Part shown: in pieces, positions 37,589 through 48,921 of the stretch
How positions within the stretch are numbered: the first letter of the stretch is position 1
Layout of the letters: every line of letters starts with the position of its first letter
Assembly (NCBI RefSeq): GCF_003086775.1
Contig: NZ_CP026001.1
Span: forward strand, 2,568,407-2,632,406
DNA: 64,000 bases
Origin: Stenotrophomonas sp. ZAC14D1_NAIMI4_1
Lineage (GTDB): Bacteria; Pseudomonadota; Gammaproteobacteria; Xanthomonadales; Xanthomonadaceae
Direction: 5' to 3'
The notes under the pieces: model-generated
The model's input: only the letters and a program-made list of their open reading frames with translations
What the model was told of the DNA's origin: nothing
Database searches by the model: none
Made by a program: the position numbers and the translations under genes

Positions 37589-38395
37589 TTACATCGGCAC
37601 GCCGACAATCACGCTCGATGCCTTGAACAGCACCGTCGCCGGGCCGCCTTCCTGCAGCCCCAGTGCGCGGGTGCTGGTGCGGGTGATGATCGCCACCACG
37701 GTGCAGCCATGGCCGATATCCACCACGATCTCATCATTCACCGCGCCTTCGGTGATGCGCTCGACCGTGCCACTGAACTGGTTGCGTGCCGAATAGCGCG
37801 TGCCATCGCCCTGCGCCACGATCACCGAGGACGCCTTGACCAGCGCATACGCCGGCACCCCCACGGCCAGGCCCAGCGATTCCACGCTGCCGTGGGTGAT
37901 GGTGGCGACCACCGCCACGCCGGGCGCGACCTCAATCTGTACTTCGTCGTTGACGGCGCCGTTGGCCAGCGCGCTGACGCGCCCGTGGAACTGGTTGCGT
38001 GCACTGGTGATCATGCCGATTCTCCGGATCAGGGCCAGATCCTCGTCCAGCCCGGGGGTGGCCTGCAGCGACTGCAGGAATGCGCGGTGCGCACGCTCGA
38101 CCTGTTCAAAGCGCGCGATCAGCTGCCGGCCACGCTCGGTCAGGCGCGCACCGCCACCACCGCGACCGCCCACGCTGCGCGCGACCAGCGGTTCGCCGGC
38201 CGCGGTGTTCATCGCGTCCACCGCATCCCAGGCGTTCTTGTAGGTCATACCCATGCGCTTGGCGGCCTGGCTGATCGAACCGCAGGCGTCGATCAAACCC
38301 AGCAGGGCGAAGCGCCCGCCTCCGCCCAGGTTCTGCCCGGCAATGCTCAGCCACAGGTTGCCCTGCAGTTCCAGGGTGGGGTCGGCCTCGCTCAT
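37589..38395 (-). CDS. modE: molybdate-responsive regulator ModE
   Basis: This 268-residue regulator has an N-terminal LysR-like winged helix (GSISQAAKRMGMTYKNAW, ARSVGGRGGGGARLT) and two C-terminal TOBE/Mop domains (SARNQFHGRVSALANGAVNDEV and SARNQFSGTVERITEGAVNDEI, split here at about residues 138 and 210), each ending VKASSVIV or FKASSVIV. ModE binds molybdate and then its operator, repressing uptake and activating some molybdoenzyme genes. ATG 38395 is chosen for its ribosome site (GGAG). It is divergent from the TonB-receptor operon, with a ModE-type operator and an FNR box in the spacer. Confidence 0.95.
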   Translation of the reverse strand: MSEADPTLELQGNLWLSIAGQNLGGGGRFALLGLIDACGSISQAAKRMGMTYKNAWDAVDAMNTAAGEPLVARSVGGRGGGGARLTERGRQLIARFEQVERAHRAFLQSLQATPGLDEDLALIRRIGMITSARNQFHGRVSALANGAVNDEVQIEVAPGVAVVATITHGSVESLGLAVGVPAYALVKASSVIVAQGDGTRYSARNQFSGTVERITEGAVNDEIVVDIGHGCTVVAIITRTSTRALGLQEGGPATVLFKASSVIVGVPM

Positions 38396-38459
38396 CGTGC
38401 TCCGTTCCATGCCGCGCGTGCGGGCCCCCAGTGTAAGGCGTCGCTGCACCGCACCGGCC

Positions 38460-38473
38460 TTGATATGAATCAA
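38460..38473. promoter_or_regulatory. perfect FNR/Anr box between modE and the TonB receptor
   Basis: TTGATATGAATCAA is an exact TTGAT-N4-ATCAA, and the symmetry extends two further bases each side (CC/GG). The centre is 112 bases before the receptor ATG and 71 bases before the modE ATG (opposite strand), so a class II start would suit either gene; a modE start near 38425 would leave a 30-base leader. It lies 62 bases left of the ModE operator. Confidence 0.7.
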
Positions 38474-38535
38474 GGTGCCCATTCACCGCACCGCCGACAC
38501 TACCCCGGTCGGTCATCAAGTTGACCCCTGCCAAC

Positions 38536-38559
38536 CGTTATATCATCGTGGATATAACG
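38536..38559. promoter_or_regulatory. ModE-type operator upstream of the TonB receptor operon
   Basis: Perfect inverted repeat CGTTATAT-N8-ATATAACG ending 19 bases before the receptor ATG. This has the same half-sites and spacing as the E. coli modA operator. Bound ModE-molybdate here would block transcription, so the operon should be on when molybdate is short. Confidence 0.85.
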
Positions 38560-38578
38560 AACCCGAGGACTCGCGAGG

Positions 38579-40564
38579 ATGCGTACCTGTCGTTTCGTTC
38601 TACCCCTGTCGGCCCTGCTGCTCCCTCTCTCCGCACATGCCCTCGAGGCGGCCGCGCCGCCCCCGGTATTCACCCTGGGCACGGTTGACGTGCACGCCAC
38701 CCGCGGCACGTCGGCCACCGTGGCCGAGCGCCGCCTGGATGCAGAACGCATCCAGCAGCTGGACCGCAACACCGTCGGCGAGGCCGTCAGCGTGCTGCCC
38801 GGCGTCAGCCTGGCCCGCAACTCGCGCAATGAGGACATGGTCTACCTGCGCGGCTTCGATGCACGCCAGGTGCCGGTGTTCCTGGATGGCATCCCGTTGT
38901 ACGTGCCCTACGACGGCTATGTGGATTTCGGCCGCTTCACCACCTTCGATCTCGCCGAGATCCAGGTCGCCAGCGGTGGCGCCTCGCTGCTGTATGGCCC
39001 CAACATCCTCGGCGGTGCGATCAACCTGGTCAGTCGCCGCCCCGACCGTCCGTTCGAAGGCGATGTGCGCCTGGGCATCGCCGATGGTGGCGAGCGCAAG
39101 GCGGCCTTCAACCTTGGCGGCCGCCAGGGCGACTGGTACTACCAGCTGGGCGCATCGATCCTGAAGGCCGATGAGTTCCCGCTGCCCGACGGCTTCGTCG
39201 ATTACAAGCGCGTACCCACCGACACCGGCAGCGAGCGCCAGAATGCCCAGCGCGAAGACCGTCGCCTGTCGTTCAAGCTCGGCTACACGCCGCGCGAAGG
39301 CGATGAGTACGCCATCGGCTATGCACGCCAGGACGGCGAGAAGGGCAACCCGGTCTACACCGGCACCGCGCGCAGCGGCATCCGCTACTGGCGCTGGCCC
39401 TGGTGGGACAAGGACAGCCTGTACTTCATCGGCAACACCGCCCTGGGCGAACACACCACCCTGCGCACGCGCGTCTACCGCGATACCTACGGCAACGGCC
39501 TGGACGCCTATACCGATGGCACCTACCAGGTGGCCATGGACAACGCCAGCTTCCCCAGCATCTACGACGACCGCACCGTCGGTGGCTCGGTCACCCTGGC
39601 CACTACCGTGCTGCCGCGCCAGGAACTGCAGCTGGCCGTGCACTACAAGGAAGACAAGCACAGCGAGAGCAACCCGCATTCGCCGACCAAGGAGTACCGC
39701 GATGTCACCACCTCGGTGGCCATCGAAGACCGCATCGCGCTCACCGATACCTCGCACCTGCGCGTGGGCATCGGCCACGACCGCCGCGAGGCCAAGCGCG
39801 TGTACTTCTGGCCGACCGGCAGCACCGACGCCACCAACGGCGTGGTCGAGTACGTGCAGCAGATGGCGCCGGACCAGCAGTGGTACGCCAGCGTCGCGCG
39901 GCGCACGCGCTTCCCGACCATCAAGGACCGCTATTCGGCGCGCATGGGTGCGGCCCTGCCCAACCCGGACCTCGCCCCCGAGCACGCCACCCATTTCGAA
40001 CTGGGCCTGCGCGGGCGCTGGTGGGAAGGCGGCCAGCTGCAGGCCGCGCTGTTCCAGAGCCGCATCGATGACCTGATCCAGACCGCTATCGTGGCCTCGA
40101 CCGACTGCGGCGGCAGCACCTGCAACCAGGCGCAGAACATCGGCAAAGCCCGCCACCAGGGCGTGGAACTGGGCCTGCAGCAGCGCTTCGGTGATGACTG
40201 GAACCTGCAGGGCAGCTACACCTGGCTGCGCCGCACCAACCTGCAGAACCGCGACGTCGCCCTGCTCGACAGCCCGCGGCAGCGGCTGTTCATGGCGGTT
40301 GGCTGGCAGATGCTGCCGCAGGTCAAGCTGCAGGCCACGGTGGAAGCCGAACAGGGGCGCAAGGTCAGCTACGCCGACACCGCGCGCCCGGTACGTGCCC
40401 TGCCCGGCTACGGCATCGTCGGCCTGAAGGCCAGCTGGGCCCCGCGTGACGCCTTGGATTTCGACGTCGGCGTGCGCAATATCGGCGACAAGTGGTATGA
40501 GCTGGCCGATGGCTACCCGATGCCCGGCCGCACCTGGTTCGCCAACGCCAACTGGAGGTTCTGA
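38579..40564 (+). CDS. TonB-dependent outer-membrane receptor, ModE-controlled
   Basis: This 661-residue receptor has a signal peptide (ending SAHA), a plug domain (GEAVSVLPGVSLARN, DGIPLYVPYDGYVDFGRF broken at about residues 90-125, GASLLYGPNILGGAINLVSRRP) and a 22-strand barrel ending in an aromatic residue (NANWRF). It is FecA/FepA-like in type, so it takes up a chelate or large solute with TonB energy. The substrate is unknown; the ModE operator and the following permease genes point to molybdate, tungstate or their chelates. Two bases separate it from the DUF2478 gene. Confidence 0.9.
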   Translation: MRTCRFVLPLSALLLPLSAHALEAAAPPPVFTLGTVDVHATRGTSATVAERRLDAERIQQLDRNTVGEAVSVLPGVSLARNSRNEDMVYLRGFDARQVPVFLDGIPLYVPYDGYVDFGRFTTFDLAEIQVASGGASLLYGPNILGGAINLVSRRPDRPFEGDVRLGIADGGERKAAFNLGGRQGDWYYQLGASILKADEFPLPDGFVDYKRVPTDTGSERQNAQREDRRLSFKLGYTPREGDEYAIGYARQDGEKGNPVYTGTARSGIRYWRWPWWDKDSLYFIGNTALGEHTTLRTRVYRDTYGNGLDAYTDGTYQVAMDNASFPSIYDDRTVGGSVTLATTVLPRQELQLAVHYKEDKHSESNPHSPTKEYRDVTTSVAIEDRIALTDTSHLRVGIGHDRREAKRVYFWPTGSTDATNGVVEYVQQMAPDQQWYASVARRTRFPTIKDRYSARMGAALPNPDLAPEHATHFELGLRGRWWEGGQLQAALFQSRIDDLIQTAIVASTDCGGSTCNQAQNIGKARHQGVELGLQQRFGDDWNLQGSYTWLRRTNLQNRDVALLDSPRQRLFMAVGWQMLPQVKLQATVEAEQGRKVSYADTARPVRALPGYGIVGLKASWAPRDALDFDVGVRNIGDKWYELADGYPMPGRTWFANANWRF

Positions 40565-40566
40565 GC

Positions 40567-41106
40567 ATGGGCACCACCCCGACACCGCGCATCGCCGCGA
40601 TCGTGCATGACCACAGCGGCGAACCCGATGGGCTGCTGGCCGCGTTCGCCGCGCGCCAGCTGGCTGCCGGGGTGCGCGTGCGCGGGCTGGTGCACCTGCC
40701 ACACGAACCCACTGCCAACGGCAAGCGCATGGCCCTGATGGACGTGACCGACCCCGGCTCACGCTACCCCATCAGCCAGGCGCTCGGCCCGGCGTCGTGC
40801 GGCTGCAATCTGGACCCGGGCGGCATCGCCGATGCCAGCGTCGTACTGCGTCGTGCCCTGCAGGAACCTGCCGAGCTGGCCATCGCCAACCGCTTCGGCA
40901 CGCTGGAATCGGAAGGCGGCGGCATGGCCGACGAACTGCTGGCGCTGATGATGGCCGACATTCCCGTGTTGACCGCAGTGAAGCTGCCCTATCTGCAGGC
41001 CTGGCGCGAGTTCACCGGCGGGCTGGCCGCCGAACTGCCCGCCGACGCCGATGCACTGGAGCGCTGGTGGAAGGCCTGCCGCAGCGCACCGGTGGCGGCG
41101 GCATGA
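40567..41106 (+). CDS. DUF2478 family protein
   Basis: This 179-residue protein matches the DUF2478 family, which is recurrently linked to molybdenum transport genes. Segments include IAAIVHDHSGEPDGLLA, GLVHLPH, SRYPISQALGPASCGCNLDPG (split near residues 60-80) and NRFGTLESEGGGMADEL. The fold is thought to be a P-loop-like NTPase relative but no intact Walker A is visible. It starts 2 bases after the receptor stop and overlaps the binding-protein gene by 4 bp. The biochemical role is unknown. Confidence 0.8.
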   Translation: MGTTPTPRIAAIVHDHSGEPDGLLAAFAARQLAAGVRVRGLVHLPHEPTANGKRMALMDVTDPGSRYPISQALGPASCGCNLDPGGIADASVVLRRALQEPAELAIANRFGTLESEGGGMADELLALMMADIPVLTAVKLPYLQAWREFTGGLAAELPADADALERWWKACRSAPVAAA

Positions 41107-42140
41107 GGCGGCGTGCGCTGCTGCAGGCCTTCGCGCTGGCACCCTTGCTGGCCGCCAGTGCAGAACTGCTGGCGATGCCCGCCCAGCGCGTGCTGCGCCT
41201 GGGTGCGCCGAAGGCCACCCCCAGGCGTGTGTTCGCCGCCGGTCCGCCGGCCGCCGTGCTGATCGCCGCCGTGGCGCCGGACCGCCTGCTCGGCTGGCCG
41301 ATGAAGGTTTCGCCGGATGCCCTGGCGCAGTTACCGGCATCGCTGCGCACCCTGCCCGTGGTCGGCCGCCTGGCCGGCCGTGGCAGCACCGTCAGCCTGG
41401 AACGCCTGTTGTCGATGCAGCCGGACCTGGTACTGGACGCCGGGGATTTCGATGCCAACTATCGCGACGGCGCCGAGCGCGTCTGGAAGCAGACCGCCAT
41501 CCCCTTCGAGTTGATTGCAGGCCGGCTGCCCGACCATCCCGCGCAGTTGCGCCACGTCGGCACACTGCTGGGCGTACCTGCGCGCGGCGAAGCGCTGGCC
41601 AAGGCCGCAGAGGCACAACTGGCACTGGTGCGCGAGGTGCTGGCCGCGCGTCCGCCCGCATCCCGCCCCACTGTCTACTACGGCCGCGGCAGCGATGGCC
41701 TGGAGAGCGGCTTGTCCGGCTCCATCAATACCGAGGTGATCGAATTCTGTGGCGGCCGCAACGTGGCGGCGAGTGCCGGCAGCGGAGGCTTGGCGCGCGT
41801 GTCGTTCGAGCAGCTGCTGGCCTGGGACCCGGACGTGATCCTGACCCAGGATGCCGGCTTTGCTGCACGCGCCGTACAGGATCCGCGCTGGCGCGCCCTG
41901 CGCGCGGTACGCGAGGGGCGCCTGCACTGCGCGCCGGTGCTGCCGTTCGGCTGGCTGGACGGTCCACCGGGCATCAACCGCCTGCCGGGCCTGCCCTGGC
42001 TGCTGTCCAAGCTGCACCCCGGCGCAGCGCCGGCACTGGCACCGGCCGCACTGCGCGCGCGGCTGGCTGCACTGCATCTGCTGCTGTGGGGCCAACCGTT
42101 GCCCGCCGACATCGCACGCCACCTGGACACGCGCAGCTGA
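41103..42140 (+). CDS. periplasmic metal/chelate binding protein of a BtuF/FecB-type ABC importer
   Basis: This 345-residue protein has a signal peptide beginning MRRRALLQAFALAPLLAAS (a twin-arginine could make it a Tat substrate) and two Rossmann-like lobes of the class III solute-binding family: SLERLLSMQPDLVLDAG in lobe one and FEQLLAWDPDVILTQD in lobe two. Relatives such as MolA of Haemophilus bind molybdate and tungstate, others bind iron chelates or cobalamin. Operon position suggests molybdate or a molybdenum chelate. It overlaps DUF2478 by 4 bp and the permease start by 1 bp. Confidence 0.88.
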   Translation: MRRRALLQAFALAPLLAASAELLAMPAQRVLRLGAPKATPRRVFAAGPPAAVLIAAVAPDRLLGWPMKVSPDALAQLPASLRTLPVVGRLAGRGSTVSLERLLSMQPDLVLDAGDFDANYRDGAERVWKQTAIPFELIAGRLPDHPAQLRHVGTLLGVPARGEALAKAAEAQLALVREVLAARPPASRPTVYYGRGSDGLESGLSGSINTEVIEFCGGRNVAASAGSGGLARVSFEQLLAWDPDVILTQDAGFAARAVQDPRWRALRAVREGRLHCAPVLPFGWLDGPPGINRLPGLPWLLSKLHPGAAPALAPAALRARLAALHLLLWGQPLPADIARHLDTRS

Positions 42141-43156
42141 TGCGGCGTCCGCTTCCTGGTTGGGCCTGGCATGTGGGTGGCTGGGCATTGTTGCTGGCGA
42201 TGCTGCTGGCGGCGTTCTCGGTCGGCCAGTTCCCCGTGCGGCCCGGAGCGCTGCTGCAGGCCATCGGCTGGCAGCTGTTCGGCATCGGCGAGCCCAGTCC
42301 TCCGGCAGTGCAGGCCGCGCTCTGGCATATCCGCCTGCCGCGCGTGCTGGCCGCGGTGCTGATCGGCGCGGTGCTCTCTGCTGCCGGCGCGGCTTACCAG
42401 GCCATGTTCCGCAACCCGCTGGTCTCGCCGGACATCCTTGGCGTCTCCGCTGGTGCCGGCCTCGGCGCTTCGCTGGGCCTGTTCCTCGGCCTGCCGATGC
42501 TGCTGGTCCAGGGCATTGCCTTTGCGGGTGGGCTGGGTGCGGTCGGCCTGGTCTGCATGGTGGCCGCGCTGGTGCGCCGGCATGATCCGGTGCTGGTGCT
42601 CGTGCTGACCGGCGTAGCGGTTTCCGCACTGCTGGGCGCGGGCATTTCGCTGCTGAAGCTGCTGGCCGATCCGTACACCCAGCTCCCATCCATCACGTTC
42701 TGGCTGCTGGGCGGCCTCAACGCGGTGGTCACCGATGATCTGCGGGTAACCGCGCCGCTGCTGCTGATCGGCGTGCTGCCGCTGCTATTGCTGCGCTGGC
42801 GGGTCAACCTGCTCAGCCTGGGCGACGAGGAAGCCAGCGCACTGGGCGTGGCGGTGACGCCGCTGCGCTGGACCTTGATCGCGGCGGCCACGCTGTGCAC
42901 CGCCGCGGCGGTTTCACTGGCGGGCATCATCGGCTGGGTCGGGCTGGTGGTTCCGCACATCGCCCGCCTGCTGGTCGGCGCGGACTTCCGCCGCCTGCTG
43001 CCGGCCAGCCTGCTGCTGGGCGCCAGCTTCCTGCTGGCGGCCGACACGCTGGCACGCATCGTGGCGCCGATCGAACTGCCGCTGGGCATCCTCACCGCCT
43101 TCGTCGGTGTGCCCTGCTTCCTGCTGGTCCTGGCGCGCAGCGAGCGTCGCGCATGA
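42140..43156 (+). CDS. FecCD/BtuC-type ABC permease
   Basis: This 338-residue membrane protein has about ten helices, with the family motifs RLPRVLAAVLIGAVLSAAG near residue 60 and FRNPLVSPDILGVSAGAG near residue 95. Two copies would form the channel of a type II importer that moves chelates or metals. It is MolB-like in architecture. The TGATG junction with the binding protein and the ATGA junction with the ATPase indicate coupled translation. Confidence 0.93.
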   Translation: MRRPLPGWAWHVGGWALLLAMLLAAFSVGQFPVRPGALLQAIGWQLFGIGEPSPPAVQAALWHIRLPRVLAAVLIGAVLSAAGAAYQAMFRNPLVSPDILGVSAGAGLGASLGLFLGLPMLLVQGIAFAGGLGAVGLVCMVAALVRRHDPVLVLVLTGVAVSALLGAGISLLKLLADPYTQLPSITFWLLGGLNAVVTDDLRVTAPLLLIGVLPLLLLRWRVNLLSLGDEEASALGVAVTPLRWTLIAAATLCTAAAVSLAGIIGWVGLVVPHIARLLVGADFRRLLPASLLLGASFLLAADTLARIVAPIELPLGILTAFVGVPCFLLVLARSERRA

Positions 43157-43923
43157 GCCCGGCCCCGTCGCTGCTGAATGCAGACGCCCTGGTGATCGGC
43201 CATGCCGGGGTGGCACTGGGCGCACCGTTCGCGCTGTCGGTGCAGCCGGGCGAAGTGATGTGCCTGCTCGGCCCCAACGGCTGCGGCAAGACCACCCTGT
43301 TCCGTACCCTGCTCGGGCTGCTGCCGCCGGTAGCCGGCGAGGTACGCCTGCTGGGCCAGCCGCTGCGCGGGCTTGACCGCGCCACACGCGCGCGGCGAAT
43401 GGGTTACGTGCCCCAGGCCGCGCCACTGCCGTTTGCCTGGTGCGTGCGCGACGTGGTGGCGATGGGTCGCGCTGCGCACCTCGGCCTGCTGGCCGCACCC
43501 GGCCGCGCCGATGAAGCGATCGCCGAAGACTGCCTGCGCGAACTGGGCCTGCAGGCGCTGGCCGACCGCACCGTGACCACCCTCAGCGGGGGCGAACGGC
43601 AGCTGGTGCTGATCGCCCGCGCCCTGGCCCAGCAGGCGCAGCTGCTGGTGATGGACGAACCCACCGCCAGTCTCGATTTCGGCAACCAGCTGCACATCCT
43701 CGATACCGTGCGCCGCCTGGCCGGGCGCGGCATCGGCGTGCTGCTGTCCACCCATCAACCGCAGCACGCGCTGCAGGTGGCCGATCGCATCGCGCTGATG
43801 TCGGCGGGCAGCCTGACGGCGCTCGGTCGCGCGCAGGAGATCGCCACGCCCGCGCGGCTGGCCGCCCTCTATGGCGTCGATGCTGCCCGTGTCGCCGCCG
43901 CACTTCCCGCTTCTGGAGCATGA
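43153..43923 (+). CDS. FecE/BtuD-type ABC ATPase
   Basis: This 256-residue ATPase has Walker A GPNGCGKTT, a Q-loop region YVPQAA, the signature LSGGERQLVLIARALAQ, Walker B LLVMDEPTASLD and the switch histidine STHQP. It powers the importer formed with the permease and binding protein just upstream. It overlaps the permease by 4 bp and the methyltransferase by 4 bp. Confidence 0.94.
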   Translation: MSPAPSLLNADALVIGHAGVALGAPFALSVQPGEVMCLLGPNGCGKTTLFRTLLGLLPPVAGEVRLLGQPLRGLDRATRARRMGYVPQAAPLPFAWCVRDVVAMGRAAHLGLLAAPGRADEAIAEDCLRELGLQALADRTVTTLSGGERQLVLIARALAQQAQLLVMDEPTASLDFGNQLHILDTVRRLAGRGIGVLLSTHQPQHALQVADRIALMSAGSLTALGRAQEIATPARLAALYGVDAARVAAALPASGA

Positions 43924-44726
43924 TCGTGAACACCCCGCTTCCCGCGCCCATCGACCACAGTGCCCGCTACCGCCAGCACCTGCTGGCCTGCGGCTTCCAG
44001 CCCAAGCCCGCCAGCGCCTGGGACGCGCGGGCGGCACAGTCCAGCTGGAAGCGCCGGCATGATGACTACAGCGAGGCCTTCCTCGCCCGGCTCGATCTCA
44101 CTGGCATTGCCACCGTGCTGGACGTGGGCTGCGGTCCCGGCCTGCTCAGCCTGCCCATCGCCGCGCAGGTGGAGCAGGTGCATGCGCTGGACTACAGCAG
44201 CGGCATGCTCGATGGACTGCGCGCGGCCATCGCTCGCGACGGCGTGGGCAATGTCACGCCGTGGCCGCTGTCCTGGACCGATGACTGGCAGGCCGTGCCG
44301 CGCTGCGGCCTGGCTATTGCCTCGCGCTCGCTGATGGTGCCGGACCTTGAAGCCGCACTGCGCAGGCTGGATGCACATGCACTCCAGCGCGCCTGCATCA
44401 CCTTCGCCACCGGCCCGCGCGCCGGTGTCACGGAACTGGCCGAGCTGCTGGGCCGCGAATGGGTGCCGATGCCCGATCACCGTTACCCCATCAACATGCT
44501 GCTGGACATGGGCCGCGAGCCGCAGGTGGACTACCTGCCCGAATCGGTGCGCGACGTGGACCAGGATGCCGATGGCCTGGTGCGCCAGGCGGTTGACCTG
44601 TTCGGTGTGCTGGATGAGGACGAGCAGGAGCGCGTGCGCGCCTGGCATGCGCGTTCGCCGCAGCATCGGTTCGGCATGGCACCGACACGGCGCTGGGCCT
44701 TCATCCAGTGGGCGACGGACTGCTGA
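43920..44726 (+). CDS. SAM-dependent methyltransferase of the Mo-uptake operon
   Basis: This 268-residue class I methyltransferase has the SAM motif VLDVGCGPGLLSL near residue 67 and a downstream acidic ALDYSSGML. The target is unknown. It is the last gene of the operon and overlaps the ATPase by 4 bp, so it is unlikely to be there by chance. It could modify an organic ligand of the imported oxyanion, or be used to release the metal; both are inference. Start: ATG 43920 (or GTG 43926). SMAG-like repeats follow. Confidence 0.85.
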   Translation: MIVNTPLPAPIDHSARYRQHLLACGFQPKPASAWDARAAQSSWKRRHDDYSEAFLARLDLTGIATVLDVGCGPGLLSLPIAAQVEQVHALDYSSGMLDGLRAAIARDGVGNVTPWPLSWTDDWQAVPRCGLAIASRSLMVPDLEAALRRLDAHALQRACITFATGPRAGVTELAELLGREWVPMPDHRYPINMLLDMGREPQVDYLPESVRDVDQDADGLVRQAVDLFGVLDEDEQERVRAWHARSPQHRFGMAPTRRWAFIQWATDC

Positions 44727-44801: not shown

Positions 44802-45470
44802 TCAATCGCTGACGATGCGGCCGTCAACGACGCGGGCCACCTGCTGGCCGAATACTTCGACATCGCGCGGGTCGTGGCTGATCAGCAGCAGCGGAATGCC
44901 CGTCTCATCCAGCACCGCTTCCAGCTCCTGGCGCAGGTGCTGGCGCAGATCGTGGTCCAGTGCAGCGAACGGTTCGTCCAGCAGCAGCGCCTGCGGCTGG
45001 GTCACCAGCGCCCGTGCCAGCGCCGTACGCTGACGCTGGCCGCCAGATACCTGCGACGGCAGCAGATCGGCCACGTGGTCGATGCGGAAGGCCTGCAGCC
45101 AACGCTCCACCGCATCATTGCGTACGGCGCGGCGAGGATTGAGCCAGCCGCGGTGCAGCCCGAACGCCACGTTCTGCCGCACACTCAGGTGCGGGAACAG
45201 CGCGTAATCCTGGAACACATAGCCCAGCCGGCGTTGCTGCGGTGGCAGGTTCACCCCCGCGGCACTGTCGAACAACACCTGGCCCTGCAGCCGCACGTGG
45301 CCGTGCCAAGGCCGCAGCAGGCCTGCCACGGCCTTCAGGGTCAGGCTCTTGCCCGCACCGGACGGGCCGAACAGCACCACCTGGCGCTGCCGGCACTGCA
45401 GCGCCACGTCCAGCACGAACTGCGGGCTGGCCGCCTGCATCGGCCGGTGAACCTGCAGATCAAGCCACAT
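44802..45470 (-). CDS. modC: molybdate ABC ATPase ModC, short form
   Basis: This 222-residue ATPase has Walker A GPSGAGKSLTL, the signature VSGGQRQRTALARALV, Walker B ALLLDEPFAALD and switch LLISHD. It drives molybdate import with ModB. Classical ModC has about 350 residues, with a C-terminal TOBE/Mop regulatory domain; here the protein ends right after the switch region (VDGRIVSD), so molybdate inhibition of transport through that domain is not expected. It overlaps modB by 11 bp. Confidence 0.9.
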   Translation of the reverse strand: MWLDLQVHRPMQAASPQFVLDVALQCRQRQVVLFGPSGAGKSLTLKAVAGLLRPWHGHVRLQGQVLFDSAAGVNLPPQQRRLGYVFQDYALFPHLSVRQNVAFGLHRGWLNPRRAVRNDAVERWLQAFRIDHVADLLPSQVSGGQRQRTALARALVTQPQALLLDEPFAALDHDLRQHLRQELEAVLDETGIPLLLISHDPRDVEVFGQQVARVVDGRIVSD

Positions 45471-46143
45471 CGCGCAGCTCCTGCCGGCGCCCGCCTACCA
45501 GGCGCGCGGCCAGCAGCAGGATCACGATGCACACCACCGAGGTCAGGATCACCAGCGCATTGGCCTTGCCATCCTGCCCGGCCTGCACCGCTTCATAGAT
45601 CGCAATCGAGAGCGTCTGCGTGCGGCCGGGAATGCTGCCCGCCACCATCAACGTCGCACCGAACTCGCCCATCGCCCGCGCGAACGCCAGCAGCAGGCCG
45701 GCCAGGATGCCGCGCCAGGCCAGCGGCAAGGTGATGCGGAAGAACACCGCGGCCTCGGACACGCCCAGCGTGCGTGCCGCATTCTCGAGCTGGCCATCCA
45801 CGCCTTCGAACGCGGCGCGGGCCGGCTTGAACACCAGCGGCAGCGAGGCCACCGCTGCGGCTATCACCGCCGCCTGCCAGGTAAACACCAGATTGATGCC
45901 GAACCACGACTGCAGCCACACGCCTATCGGACCGTTGCGGCCGATCAGCACCAGCAGGTAGTAGCCCAGCACCGTGGGCGGCAGCACCATCGGCAGGGTC
46001 AGTATCGAATCCAGCAGTTCACGGCCAGGGAAGCGCCTGCGCGCCAGCAGCGCACCCAGCGCAACGCCCAGCACCAGGTTGATCGCGGTGGCCCAGCCGG
46101 CCACCTTCAACGACAGGCCCAGGGCGCTCCAATCCAGATCCAT
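45460..46143 (-). CDS. modB: molybdate ABC permease ModB
   Basis: This 227-residue inner-membrane permease has about five helices and the EAA-type coupling motif (ENAARTLGVSEAAVFFRITLP, split around residue 125) plus LAFARAMGEFGATLMVAG. It forms the channel for the ModA-delivered molybdate. There are 3 bases between the modA stop and this ATG, and 11 bp overlap with modC. Confidence 0.95.
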   Translation of the reverse strand: MDLDWSALGLSLKVAGWATAINLVLGVALGALLARRRFPGRELLDSILTLPMVLPPTVLGYYLLVLIGRNGPIGVWLQSWFGINLVFTWQAAVIAAAVASLPLVFKPARAAFEGVDGQLENAARTLGVSEAAVFFRITLPLAWRGILAGLLLAFARAMGEFGATLMVAGSIPGRTQTLSIAIYEAVQAGQDGKANALVILTSVVCIVILLLAARLVGGRRQELRDVA

Positions 46144-46146
46144 GCC

Positions 46147-46893
46147 TCAGGGCTTGCCGAATCCGTGCTTGACCAGGATCGCCTGGCCCTGCGGCGAGCG
46201 CACGAAGGCCGTGAAGCGCTTTGCTTCGGCCGGCTGCGTGCTGGCCTGGACCACCGCCAGCGGATAGGCGATGCGACCGGCGACCGGCACTTCAAACGCG
46301 CGGCGCACGCGGTCGGGCATGGCCTGCGCATCGGTGGCGTAGACGAAGCCCGCATCCACTTCACCGCGCGCCACGTAATCCAGCGACTGGCGCACGTTCT
46401 GGGTGGTGATGGCCTTGCCCTGCACCGCCGGCCACAGCCCCGCCTTTTCCAGCGCACCCTTGGCATAGCGGCCCACCGGCACGCTGTCAGGGTTGCCCAG
46501 CGCGATGCGCTGCACGCTGCCGCCCGCCAGATCCTTCAGGGCACGCGGGGCGGCCTTGGCCTGCGGCGGCACCACCACCCACAGCGCGTTCACCGCAAAC
46601 ACCTCGCGGGTGCCGGGCGCCAGCAGCTTCTGCTGTTCGGCCTGGTCCATCGTGGTCTCGTCGGCCGACGCAAACACATCCACCGGCGCACCGCGGCTGA
46701 TCTGCTGCAGCAGCACCCCCGACGCGGCGAAGTTGAAATCAACCTTGGTGCCCGGGTGCGCCTTCTCGTAGGCCGCGCCCAGTTCGCGGAAACTCTCGGT
46801 CAGGCTCGACGCCGCCGACACCGTCAGGTCGGCGGCCCATGCCGGCAGTGCGGCCAGCAGGCCCAGCAACAACAGTCCAGCACGTTTCATCAT
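46147..46893 (-). CDS. modA: molybdate-binding periplasmic protein ModA
   Basis: This 248-residue exported protein has a signal peptide (LLLLGLLAALPAWA) followed by LTVSAASSLTESFRELG, the ModA N-terminus, with the oxyanion-contact segments FNFAASGVL, GAPVDVFASADE and VDAGFVYATDA. It binds molybdate or tungstate in the periplasm for ModBC. It starts 16 bases after the stop of the FNR-type gene, so it may be transcribed with it. Confidence 0.95.
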   Translation of the reverse strand: MMKRAGLLLLGLLAALPAWAADLTVSAASSLTESFRELGAAYEKAHPGTKVDFNFAASGVLLQQISRGAPVDVFASADETTMDQAEQQKLLAPGTREVFAVNALWVVVPPQAKAAPRALKDLAGGSVQRIALGNPDSVPVGRYAKGALEKAGLWPAVQGKAITTQNVRQSLDYVARGEVDAGFVYATDAQAMPDRVRRAFEVPVAGRIAYPLAVVQASTQPAEAKRFTAFVRSPQGQAILVKHGFGKP

Positions 46894-46909
46894 CGGCTCC
46901 CGTCAGGAT

Positions 46910-47686
46910 TCAGTCTGGTTCGGATTCGTCGGCCACCGCCAGGGCGGCCAGACGCTCAGGTTGCAGCAGCAGGATCTCACGCTGTTTGACCGCGATCACA
47001 CCGTCGTCGCTCAGGCGCCGCAGCACGCGGCTGGCAGTCTCCGGCGCCATGCGCAGGTAGTTGGCGATCTCGGTGCGGGCCATGGTCAGGTTGAAGCGCG
47101 TGGCGGAAAAACCACGGCGCGCGTAACGCTCGGACATGTCCAGCAGGAACGCGGCCATGCGTTCCTCGGTGCGGTGGTTGGCGGCCAGCGTGGCGACCTT
47201 GCCGATCTCCGCGCTGAGCAGGCTGAACAGTTTGGCCTGCAGCCCGGGCATGCGCGTGGCCAGCAGGCTCAGCTTCGGGAAGGAGATGCGGCACAGGTGC
47301 ACCGTGTCCAGCGCTACGGCATTGCAGGGGAAGCGCGAACCATGAATGGCATTGAGGCCGATCACTTCGCCGGGCAGGCTGAAACCGAGCACCTGCTCGT
47401 TGCCCTGGCTGTCATCGACGAAGGTCTTGACCATGCCCGCGCGCACCGCGGCGATCGAATCGAACTGTTCACCGGCACGGAAGATGTAATCACCCGCGTG
47501 GAACGGGCCGACATGATCCACCAGCACGTGCAGGTCACCCAGCGCGGTCTTGTCGTAGCCCTGCGACATGCAGGCATCGGAAAACGCGCAGGTGCTGCAG
47601 AAATGCAGGGCGTCGCCATCATCGGCGGCGGCGGGGTTCGGCGTGGCCTGGCCGAGGCGGCCGCGGGAAGGCGGAGTCAAGGACAT
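46910..47686 (-). CDS. fnr: FNR/Anr-type oxygen-sensing regulator
   Basis: This 258-residue Crp/FNR regulator has the four cysteines expected for a [4Fe-4S] cluster: Cys30, Cys33 and Cys39 in the N-terminus (FCSTCAFSDAC) and Cys132 (VHLCRISF). A cyclic-nucleotide-fold domain follows, then a helix-turn-helix whose recognition helix carries the FNR signature E-x-x-S-R (APETASRVL). It should bind TTGAT-N4-ATCAA sites, several of which are in this window. ATG 47686 is chosen over an upstream in-frame extension as it starts the usual N-terminus. It lies 11 bases after the HemN-like gene and 16 before modA. Confidence 0.93.
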   Translation of the reverse strand: MSLTPPSRGRLGQATPNPAAADDGDALHFCSTCAFSDACMSQGYDKTALGDLHVLVDHVGPFHAGDYIFRAGEQFDSIAAVRAGMVKTFVDDSQGNEQVLGFSLPGEVIGLNAIHGSRFPCNAVALDTVHLCRISFPKLSLLATRMPGLQAKLFSLLSAEIGKVATLAANHRTEERMAAFLLDMSERYARRGFSATRFNLTMARTEIANYLRMAPETASRVLRRLSDDGVIAVKQREILLLQPERLAALAVADESEPD

Positions 47687-47697
47687 CGAAGCGACAC

Positions 47698-48921
47698 TCA
47701 AGCGATGGCGGCCGCCGGCCGGAAACATGCCGCCATCATACGCCACAGCAGGTGCCCTTCTTCGGCCAGGCGCAGGACGCGCCCGTCCCAGTGGGCCCAG
47801 CCGCGCGCCAGCAGCGGATCCAGGGCCGGCAGTGCATCGGCGAAGCACGCATCAAACGCGACGCCATTGCGCCATTCAAACGCCGCGGCATCGACGGAAT
47901 GGTCGCAGGCGATGCTCTGCGCCACCTCGGACGACAGTCGCTCCTGTTCAGACAGGATCAGGCCAGCCGTCACCCCCATCTGTCCAGACTGCAGGCGCGC
48001 CTGCCAGGCCTGCAGGTCGTCTTCCAGCCGGTAGAACACCTCGCCGATCTGGCTGCAGGCCGCCAGGCCCAGGCCGACGAAGTCGCTGCGGTCACGGCGT
48101 GGCACGCCGGCCAGGTCGCAATGGCGCTGCCCATCGCCCGGCCCGTTCGGGTCCGGCAGGTCGCCGCGCTGGTAGTGGTCACCGCCGATGGCCACGTAGC
48201 CGGCGTCGCGCAGCAGCCGCCAGGTCTGCAGCCACGCATCGGCAGCGGGCCGTTCGGGCACGGCACACGGTGCCGGCAACAGGATGCGTTCCGGTGCCTC
48301 GGCCAGGACTTCATGCACGCGCTCGATGAAGCCACCATCCTCCGCCGACGGCACGCGGAACTGGTAGTAGCGCGCAGTGAACCCGACCTGGCGCGACTGT
48401 GCCAGCAGGGTTGGACCCGGCGCATCAGCACGGTCGATCACGTTGAAACGGGTGCAGCCCACGGCGCGGAGCTGCGCCGGTGCCAGCGTGCTGCCGGCAT
48501 CCACGCGGACTTCCACCTGCGGCCGGGCCACGGTGCGCAGCTGCTGTGGCACCGCATCCAGCAACTGGCCCAACGCCACCGGCACCAGCACCTCGGCCAG
48601 GCCGAGCTGCAGCACCATGGCCACCACCTCGCGATCATCGGCCAGTGCATCGGCCTGGCGCCGCAATGCGGCCAGCAGGGTATCCAGATAGCCGGACGCG
48701 GCTGCCGCCTGCCCTGCCCGACCGGCCTGGAAGCCCAGGGTCAGCCCGCGCGGGATCAGGTGCTCGTTGCTGGCGCGCAGGGCGCCGCGCCATCCACTTT
48801 CGCCGAAGCCGGCACTGAACTGGTCGGCCGCCGGGAACAGCACGTGGCCGGGTTGCCGCAGCAATGCTGCCTGCAGCGCGGTGTCCTCACTCGGGTCGAC
48901 GTGGAAGCTCATGGCAGACAT
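47698..48921 (-). CDS. HemN-like protein lacking the radical-SAM cluster motif
   Basis: This 407-residue protein aligns along its length with oxygen-independent coproporphyrinogen III oxidase HemN: N-terminal FPAADQFSAGFGE, a C-terminal GGDHYQRGDLPDP, DFVGLGLAACSQIGEVF and a HemN C-terminal domain. The segment that should hold the radical-SAM C-x3-C-x2-C reads RGLTLGFQAGRAGQ, with no cysteine, and the GGGTP motif is also missing. It should not catalyse the HemN reaction. It might bind heme, porphyrin or another protein as a decayed paralogue. It is upstream of fnr on the same strand and an FNR-like box precedes it. ATG 48912 is an alternative start. Confidence 0.8.
   Translation of the reverse strand: MSAMSFHVDPSEDTALQAALLRQPGHVLFPAADQFSAGFGESGWRGALRASNEHLIPRGLTLGFQAGRAGQAAAASGYLDTLLAALRRQADALADDREVVAMVLQLGLAEVLVPVALGQLLDAVPQQLRTVARPQVEVRVDAGSTLAPAQLRAVGCTRFNVIDRADAPGPTLLAQSRQVGFTARYYQFRVPSAEDGGFIERVHEVLAEAPERILLPAPCAVPERPAADAWLQTWRLLRDAGYVAIGGDHYQRGDLPDPNGPGDGQRHCDLAGVPRRDRSDFVGLGLAACSQIGEVFYRLEDDLQAWQARLQSGQMGVTAGLILSEQERLSSEVAQSIACDHSVDAAAFEWRNGVAFDACFADALPALDPLLARGWAHWDGRVLRLAEEGHLLWRMMAACFRPAAAIA

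What the first reader, a model, noticed from the sequence alone, without database searches (positions are those of the whole stretch)
38395..44726. ModE- and FNR-controlled outer-membrane uptake operon: candidate chelated-molybdate/tungstate import system
The operon holds a TonB receptor, DUF2478, a class III binding protein, a FecCD permease, an ATPase and a methyltransferase, all overlapping or nearly so. Upstream is a perfect CGTTATAT-N8-ATATAACG palindrome (38536-38559), 19 bases before the receptor ATG, and modE is divergent. Classical molybdate uptake has no TonB receptor because free molybdate passes porins. A receptor together with MolABC-like parts suggests import of a complexed oxyanion. 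The genome also has modABC, so this may be a scavenging system for severe molybdenum shortage or competition.
Basis: partly seen in the sequence, partly recalled or inferred. Interest (0 to 1): 0.8.

Follow-up and report, generated by a model that had tools for sequence, protein, structure and literature searches.

The report
Outer-membrane molybdenum import operon
A Stenotrophomonas-type bacterium carries an operon that looks like a dedicated gate for bringing molybdenum through the outer membrane, switched by the cell's molybdenum sensor; a related operon occurs in many E. coli, where it is labelled as an iron system.

Summary
A six-gene operon (TonB receptor, DUF2478, class III binding protein, FecCD permease, ATPase, methyltransferase) lies beside modE and modABC. 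The palindrome at 38536-38559 has the half-sites and spacing of the one before E. coli K-12 modA and is the only match at up to 3 mismatches in the genome. A conserved FNR-type box lies at 38460-38473.

Comparison supports a molybdenum or tungsten role. In 91 genomes of the genus all 15 with the receptor have modE and narG; one more has modE, at a contig end. The one narG genome without modA has this operon. 20 of 32 receptor clusters have a ModE-like site within 400 bp upstream (0.44 expected; reversed-pattern control 5). 19 of 33 have modE, modD or modB nearby; 0 of 20 control receptor regions do. A related operon is in 2102 of 5426 E. coli genomes, with a ModE-type site in the 5 sequences checked.

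Free molybdate or a chelate: open. Binding, transport and regulation are inferred, not shown.

The parts
37589..38395 (-). modE, molybdate-responsive regulator, divergent from the operon (start taken at M30 of the longest ORF)
   Evidence: HTH_1 and 2 TOBE stretches; NCBIfam Mop 130.7 bits over cut-off 55, ModE_repress 95 vs 98.5, just below; 12 of the 15 other genus matches align from residue 1, 4 or 7 of this shorter form or nearer
38460..38473 (+). FNR-type box TTGATATGAATCAA
   Evidence: 0 expected in shuffles; FNR-like box in 13 of 13 aligned Stenotrophomonas promoters, 10 of 13 with exact TTGAT-N4-ATCAA
38536..38559 (.). ModE-type operator CGTTATATCATCGTGGATATAACG
   Evidence: only match at up to 3 mismatches in the genome; 1 mismatch to the E. 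coli K-12 palindrome before modA, same spacing; kept with 0-2 mismatches in 13 of 13 aligned promoters
38579..40564 (+). TonB-dependent receptor, 661 aa
   Evidence: Plug and barrel domains; AF2 pLDDT 88.4; member of a 41-row clade with 100/100 support
40567..41106 (+). DUF2478 protein, 179 aa; predicted fold like THEP1 NTPases, no Walker A motif seen
   Evidence: PF10649; AF2 pLDDT 90.4, Foldseek best 2i3b and 1ye8; alignment
41103..42140 (+). class III substrate-binding protein, 345 aa
   Evidence: PF01497; 4pag E 6.4e-55, MolA 3psa E 1.2e-25 by profile
42140..43156 (+). FecCD/BtuC-type permease
   Evidence: PF01032 E 6.8e-84
43153..43923 (+). ABC ATPase
   Evidence: PF00005 E 3e-32
43920..44726 (+). 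class I SAM-dependent methyltransferase
   Evidence: PF13649 E 6.1e-9
44802..46893 (-). modC, modB, modA, facing the operon; no ModE-type site at up to 3 mismatches near them
   Evidence: TIGR02141 and TIGR01256 over cut-off; TIGR02142 is modC's best family but below its cut-off; genome-wide site search
46910..47848 (-). fnr-type gene directly upstream of modABC (longest ORF; true start not fixed)
   Evidence: CRP-type domains; best NCBIfam family Fnr, 181.5 bits vs cut-off 228 (run on 46910-47650)

Best explanation
It is an accessory molybdenum (or tungsten) uptake operon. When oxygen runs short, an FNR-type regulator switches it on through the box at 38460-38473, just when nitrate reductase creates a demand for molybdenum. 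When cytoplasmic molybdate is sufficient, ModE-molybdate binds the 24-bp operator before the receptor gene and shuts it off. Under shortage the TonB receptor moves a molybdate species across the outer membrane, the class III binding protein takes it in the periplasm, and the FecCD/ATPase pair imports it. DUF2478 and the methyltransferase would act in the cytoplasm on the imported species or its carrier. Shown here: the genes, the two boxes, their conservation and the linkage to molybdenum genes. Inferred: binding of the boxes, transport, substrate and the roles of the two cytoplasmic proteins. I lean slightly to a small molybdate complex over the free anion.
For: Operator matches the palindrome before E. 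coli modA in sequence, spacing and distance to the start codon and is unique in the genome. Of 16 genus genomes searched, 15 have a site with 0-2 mismatches at this locus (12 perfect) and 1 has none. Receptor and modE: 15 of 91 genomes have both, none the receptor alone, one modE alone, and there the contig ends beside the operator. All 15 receptor genomes have narG; 25 of the 76 others do. modA is in 62 of 91, 47 of them without modE, so modE tracks the receptor, not modABC. Upstream sites in 20 of 32 receptor clusters vs 0.44 expected; with a stricter pattern taken from the K-12 palindrome 15 of 32 vs 0.26. modE, modD or modB near 19 of 33 clusters, 0 of 20 control regions. L032 has modABC, receptor, DUF2478, class III ABC, methyltransferase, DUF364, modD and modE in one run. 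A P. aeruginosa plasmid receptor lies by moaA and narGHJI with a site at 0 mismatches to the degenerate pattern.
Against: No experiment. 12 of 32 clusters lack a close site, and the reversed pattern still hits 5 of 32, so AT-rich promoters give some false sites. 25 narG genomes of the genus lack the operon. G024 has a diverged receptor (63%) and no site at 3 mismatches (one at 2 mismatches to the degenerate pattern within 1300 bp). Genus counts are not phylogenetically independent. 7 of 33 clusters have none of modE/D/B, DUF2478 or a class III ABC in the fetched stretch; of six plasmid loci inspected, the Azospirillum one has neither site nor molybdenum genes and the Bartonella one has no site. 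Nearest folds are generic: OprC, then siderophore receptors and BtuB. MolA is only a distant relative of the binding protein.
Confidence: 0.78

Rival explanations
1. The cargo is a molybdate chelate (own or stolen metallophore); methyltransferase, ModD, DUF364/DUF4213 and DUF2478 take the chelate apart or recycle it inside the cell.
For: TonB receptors with class III importers usually carry complexes (general knowledge). modD and DUF364 ('putative heavy-metal chelation') stand in the same runs in several clusters. The genome has one condensation-domain match, which reads by eye as the start of an NRPS (partial frame), about 50 kb from the receptor.
Against: No metallophore genes in the operon; the only ModE-type site of the genome at 3 mismatches is at the receptor, not at the NRPS. 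No substrate data.
Confidence: 0.45
2. The cargo is free molybdate or tungstate; the receptor simply raises the periplasmic concentration under extreme shortage or competition.
For: TonB receptors for single ions are known (general knowledge); the best Foldseek match is the copper receptor OprC. Haemophilus MolA binds molybdate and tungstate (PMC4031551, passages).
Against: Siderophore receptors score almost as well in Foldseek. Does not explain the methyltransferase or modD.
Confidence: 0.35
3. It is an iron, haem or cobalamin uptake operon that merely lies next to modE.
For: Public annotation calls the E. coli relatives iron transporters. Distant similarity of the receptor to siderophore, haem and B12 families.
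Against: The 25 NCBIfam families shown all miss their cut-offs; no Fur-like box better than background, best 9 of 19 mismatches; no Rfam match; molybdenum genes as neighbours across lineages.
Confidence: 0.07
4. The cargo is molybdenum bound to a pterin or cofactor scavenged from outside.
For: In six Thermomonas/Dokdonella-type loci and on a P. aeruginosa plasmid the receptor gene is next to a small protein (PF00174 molybdopterin-binding fold in the two tested, the rest by tblastn) that begins with what reads as a signal peptide.
Against: No such gene in the operon of the window; these proteins may be ordinary molybdoenzymes.
Confidence: 0.06

Closest known systems
MolBC-A of Haemophilus influenzae (class III molybdate/tungstate importer)
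   Same: Peripla_BP_2-type binding protein with a BtuC/FecCD-type permease; MolA detected by profile, E 1.2e-25
   Different: MolA is only the third-best solved relative; the passages read name no TonB receptor and describe low affinity (PMC4031551)
ModABC/ModE of Escherichia coli
   Same: Operator with the same 8-8-8 layout, 1 mismatch, same 19 bases to the start codon
   Different: Here it fronts a receptor operon; modABC has no such site and sits behind an fnr-type gene
T6SS-ModA-IcmP molybdate delivery in Pseudomonas aeruginosa
   Same: An outer-membrane step in molybdate acquisition (PMC8602904, passages; PMC11734730, passage)
   Different: [quoted passage not shown] no class III importer is named in those passages
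E. coli chromosomal operon between treA and ymgE, annotated as iron ABC transporter, ModD and TonB-dependent receptor
   Same: Binding protein, FecCD, ATPase, methyltransferase and a receptor of the same clade (33% identical); site with 0 mismatches to the degenerate pattern, 24 bases before the first gene, in the 5 E. coli sequences checked
   Different: Receptor gene last, modD added, no DUF2478; in 2102 of 5426 genomes
Copper receptor OprC
   Same: Best Foldseek hit, TM 0.74-0.78 to the model
   Different: 15-17% identity; other TonB receptors score almost as well

Membership tests
ModE-controlled operon | Operator with the half-sites and spacing of the E. coli modA palindrome at the promoter | tested here: met
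ModE-controlled operon | Molybdate-dependent ModE binding and repression | not testable with these tools
   needs gel shift and RNA-seq
FNR-controlled operon | FNR box in the promoter, conserved | tested here: met
FNR-controlled operon | Oxygen-dependent expression through FNR | not testable with these tools
   no expression data
MolABC class III molybdate importer | Class III binding protein, BtuC/FecCD permease and ATPase | tested here: met
MolABC class III molybdate importer | Binding protein closest to MolA | tested here: not met
   4pag and 4ovk score better than 3psa
MolABC class III molybdate importer | Binds molybdate or tungstate | not testable with these tools
   no ligand data
TonB-dependent receptor | Plug plus large beta-barrel | tested here: met
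   Pfam, model and Foldseek; strands not counted
Known siderophore, haem, cobalamin or copper receptor families (NCBIfam) | Score over the curated cut-off | tested here: not met
   best 140.5 vs 223.5 bits; the 25 of 31 families shown are all below
Active THEP1-type NTPase (DUF2478) | THEP1 fold | tested here: met
   predicted model; Foldseek 2i3b E 1.2e-5, 1ye8 E 4.0e-4
Active THEP1-type NTPase (DUF2478) | Walker A GxxxxGK[ST] | tested here: not met
   not seen by eye in the alignment of 17; motif recalled

The most novel reading that the evidence does not exclude
A widespread, unrecognised clade of TonB receptors imports chelated molybdate (a molybdophore route) together with a class III importer and a cytoplasmic set (methyltransferase, ModD, DUF364/DUF4213, DUF2478) that frees the metal, under ModE control from Stenotrophomonas to E. 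coli.
Probability: 0.35. Interest if true: 0.88.

Novelty: new variant of a known kind. Interest (0 to 1): 0.7.

Why it matters
The usual picture of molybdate uptake has no TonB-driven outer-membrane step (general knowledge; the one outer-membrane route I met in print is T6SS-ModA-IcmP). A receptor clade tied to ModE would add molybdenum to the metals fetched by TonB, would suggest roles for modD, DUF2478 and DUF364, and would re-label an operon now called 'iron' in 2102 of 5426 complete E. coli genomes. It makes the question whether bacteria use molybdophores testable with single gene removals.

Tried and rejected
Iron/cobalamin receptor: rejected as the leading idea for lack of a Fur-like box, an Rfam match or a family match. 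Chance palindrome: rejected. modABC as the ModE target in this genus: not supported. Fold search to name the substrate: uninformative. DUF2478 in the literature: one paper, a table entry (passage).

Literature: 10 searches in one open-licence PMC library. I saw there no paper on a ModE-controlled TonB receptor for molybdate, but for most hits I saw only the listing. Regulon databases and subscription papers were not searched. Passages seen: PMC9674854, PMC5343134 (the 'ModE' hits shown were other words), PMC8594446 and PMC8600466 (the first lists modD, modE and two TonB transporters called iron-associated in the Zymomonas nif cluster, a lead not followed), PMC4031551, PMC3528336, PMC3056050, PMC11734730, PMC8602904. 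No paper was read whole.

Mistake: I first read the binding protein in a wrong open frame (41105-42139). Its results are void; done again in the right frame. The homologue search was one of 3 allowed.

Pattern choice: CGNTATRT-N8-AYATANCG was fixed after I had seen some of the sites; the stricter pattern based on the K-12 palindrome was a check. Row left out of the site count: L038, too little sequence upstream.
Full report
Setting. The window is part of a 4,702,461-base single-contig genome (G000). The nine named loci with 81-91% identical receptors are Stenotrophomonas, so the source is taken as that genus. The window also carries modABC, an fnr-type gene and a narK-type transporter; narG lies at G000:C1:2622684-2626385, inside the window range.

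The operon. Six genes run from 38579 to 44726 with overlaps or a 2-base gap. Domains: TonB receptor (Plug, barrel), DUF2478, Peripla_BP_2 binding protein, FecCD permease, ABC ATPase, methyltransferase. modE is divergent. The receptor matches 31 NCBIfam families at E <= 0.001; the 25 shown are all below their curated cut-offs, the best being 140.5 against 223.5 bits. The window has no Rfam match at gathering threshold.

The control region. CGTTATATCATCGTGGATATAACG (38536-38559) is unique in the genome at up to 3 mismatches, while the genome has 71 Plug matches. E. coli K-12 has CGTTATATTGTCGCCTACATAACG before modA, also with 19 bases to the start codon. In 13 aligned Stenotrophomonas promoters the palindrome is kept with 0-2 mismatches. 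All 13 have an FNR-like box, 10 the exact TTGAT-N4-ATCAA; in 12 it starts 118-123 bases before the receptor start (the thirteenth, L079, was cut differently). If the box acts at -41.5, transcription would start near 38508 and the ModE site would lie just inside the transcript (inference). No Fur-like box stands out: best 9 of 19 mismatches, against a mean of 9.98 in 300 random stretches of the window.

Genus-level test. In 91 genomes the receptor is in 15 (E <= 1e-100), modE in 16, narG over cut-off in 40, modA in 62. Receptor and modE: 15 both, 0 receptor only, 1 modE only, 75 neither (Fisher p 3e-16). Receptor and narG: 15 both, 0 receptor only, 25 narG only, 51 neither (p 7e-7) (not corrected for shared ancestry). 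The modE-only genome, G066, has the operator at bases 640-663 of a contig with modE from 802, so a receptor gene would run off the contig. It is a draft of about 140 contigs. DUF2478 is in 8 of 61 relatives, 7 of them among the 37 of the genus.

Wider test. They fall into 33 clusters at 78% identity. Within 400 bp upstream, 20 of 32 testable clusters have a site with at most 2 mismatches to CGNTATRT-N8-AYATANCG; other windows of the same loci predict 0.44; the reversed pattern hits 5 of 32. Within 1300 bp the numbers are 24 of 32, 1.14 and 6. In five of the six Thermomonas/Dokdonella-type loci a site stands before a small PF00174-type gene that precedes the receptor gene; L030 shows none at 4 mismatches. 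With the K-12-based pattern: 15 of 32 at 2 mismatches (0.26 expected), 20 of 32 at 3 (0.36). Neighbours, by tblastn thresholds of my choice: modE, modD or modB in 19 of 33 clusters, class III binding protein plus permease in 16, DUF2478 in 12, any of these in 26; none in 20 control regions around other TonB receptors of the own genome, taken from the top 26 of the 71 Plug matches. One of those 20 stretches has a site at 2 mismatches somewhere in its 20 kb. In a tree of 52 proteins the 41 receptors form a clade with 100/100 support apart from 11 control receptors, ten of which the program flags for long branches.

L032, a Burkholderiaceae MAG, has modABC, the receptor, a protein with a weak SBP_bac_11 match (below cut-off), DUF2478, the class III ABC, the methyltransferase, DUF364/DUF4213, modD (over cut-off) and modE in one run. 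A P. aeruginosa plasmid has the receptor beside a PF00174 protein, moaA and narIJHG.

E. coli. A plasmid copy led to an operon of binding protein, FecCD, ATPase, methyltransferase, ModD and receptor. Matches are in 2102 of 5426 complete genomes, 2094 covering at least 80% of the query; 2097 places are chromosomal and 8 on plasmids; type strain ATCC 11775 is one. In the 5 E. coli sequences I checked, a site with 0 mismatches to the degenerate pattern ends 24 bases before the first gene. This receptor is 33% identical to the window's, hardly more than two other receptors of the own genome in their best aligned piece (30-32%), but it falls inside the clade.

Mechanism. Parts and controls fit a system that is on when oxygen is short and molybdate is low. 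DUF2478 folds like THEP1 NTPases in prediction (pLDDT 90.4; Foldseek 2i3b E 1.2e-5, 1ye8 E 4.0e-4) but shows no Walker A motif by eye, so it may be a binding or chaperone protein (inference). The binding protein's conserved PFGWLDGPP-x2-NR stretch aligns with PFNWTDRPP in 4pag but has no such match in MolA, which may mean a different ligand from MolA's (inference). The receptor model is nearest to OprC by a small margin.

What stays open. Free anion or complex, molybdate or tungstate, and the roles of the methyltransferase and DUF2478. The genome has one condensation-domain match about 50 kb from the receptor and outside the window (partial frame read), a possible metallophore source without a ModE-type site at 3 mismatches.

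Noticed in passing
L080:1643-1666 (G035; like sites in G076, G008, G001): A second palindrome, CGTTATATAGCACTTGCTATATTG (3 mismatches to the ModE pattern), lies before another TonB receptor in G035 (720 aa, weakly similar to the operon's receptor); near-identical sites occur in three more genomes, whose neighbours were not looked at.
   Followed up: partly
L026-L031 and L099; partial in L078: A small PF00174-type protein that begins with what reads as a signal peptide, with a Cys kept in the three translated, is encoded next to the receptor gene.
   Followed up: partly
window 47698-48921 (-): HemN-like ORF with a HemN_C match, no radical-SAM domain hit and no CxxxCxxC motif by eye.
   Followed up: no
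window 46893-46910: An fnr-type gene ends 16 bases upstream of modA on the same strand, so molybdate import may be co-transcribed with it.
   Followed up: no
G030:C2:95025-97010 (L052): The receptor gene is reported with one internal TGA.
   Followed up: no
window 38510-38530: A block around GTCATCAAGTTGACCCC between the FNR and ModE boxes is conserved in many of the aligned Stenotrophomonas promoters; role unknown.
   Followed up: no
L036:6217, 9554, 9898, 13811: A Pseudorhodoplanes MAG has four ModE-type sites with 1-2 mismatches around one such cluster.
   Followed up: no
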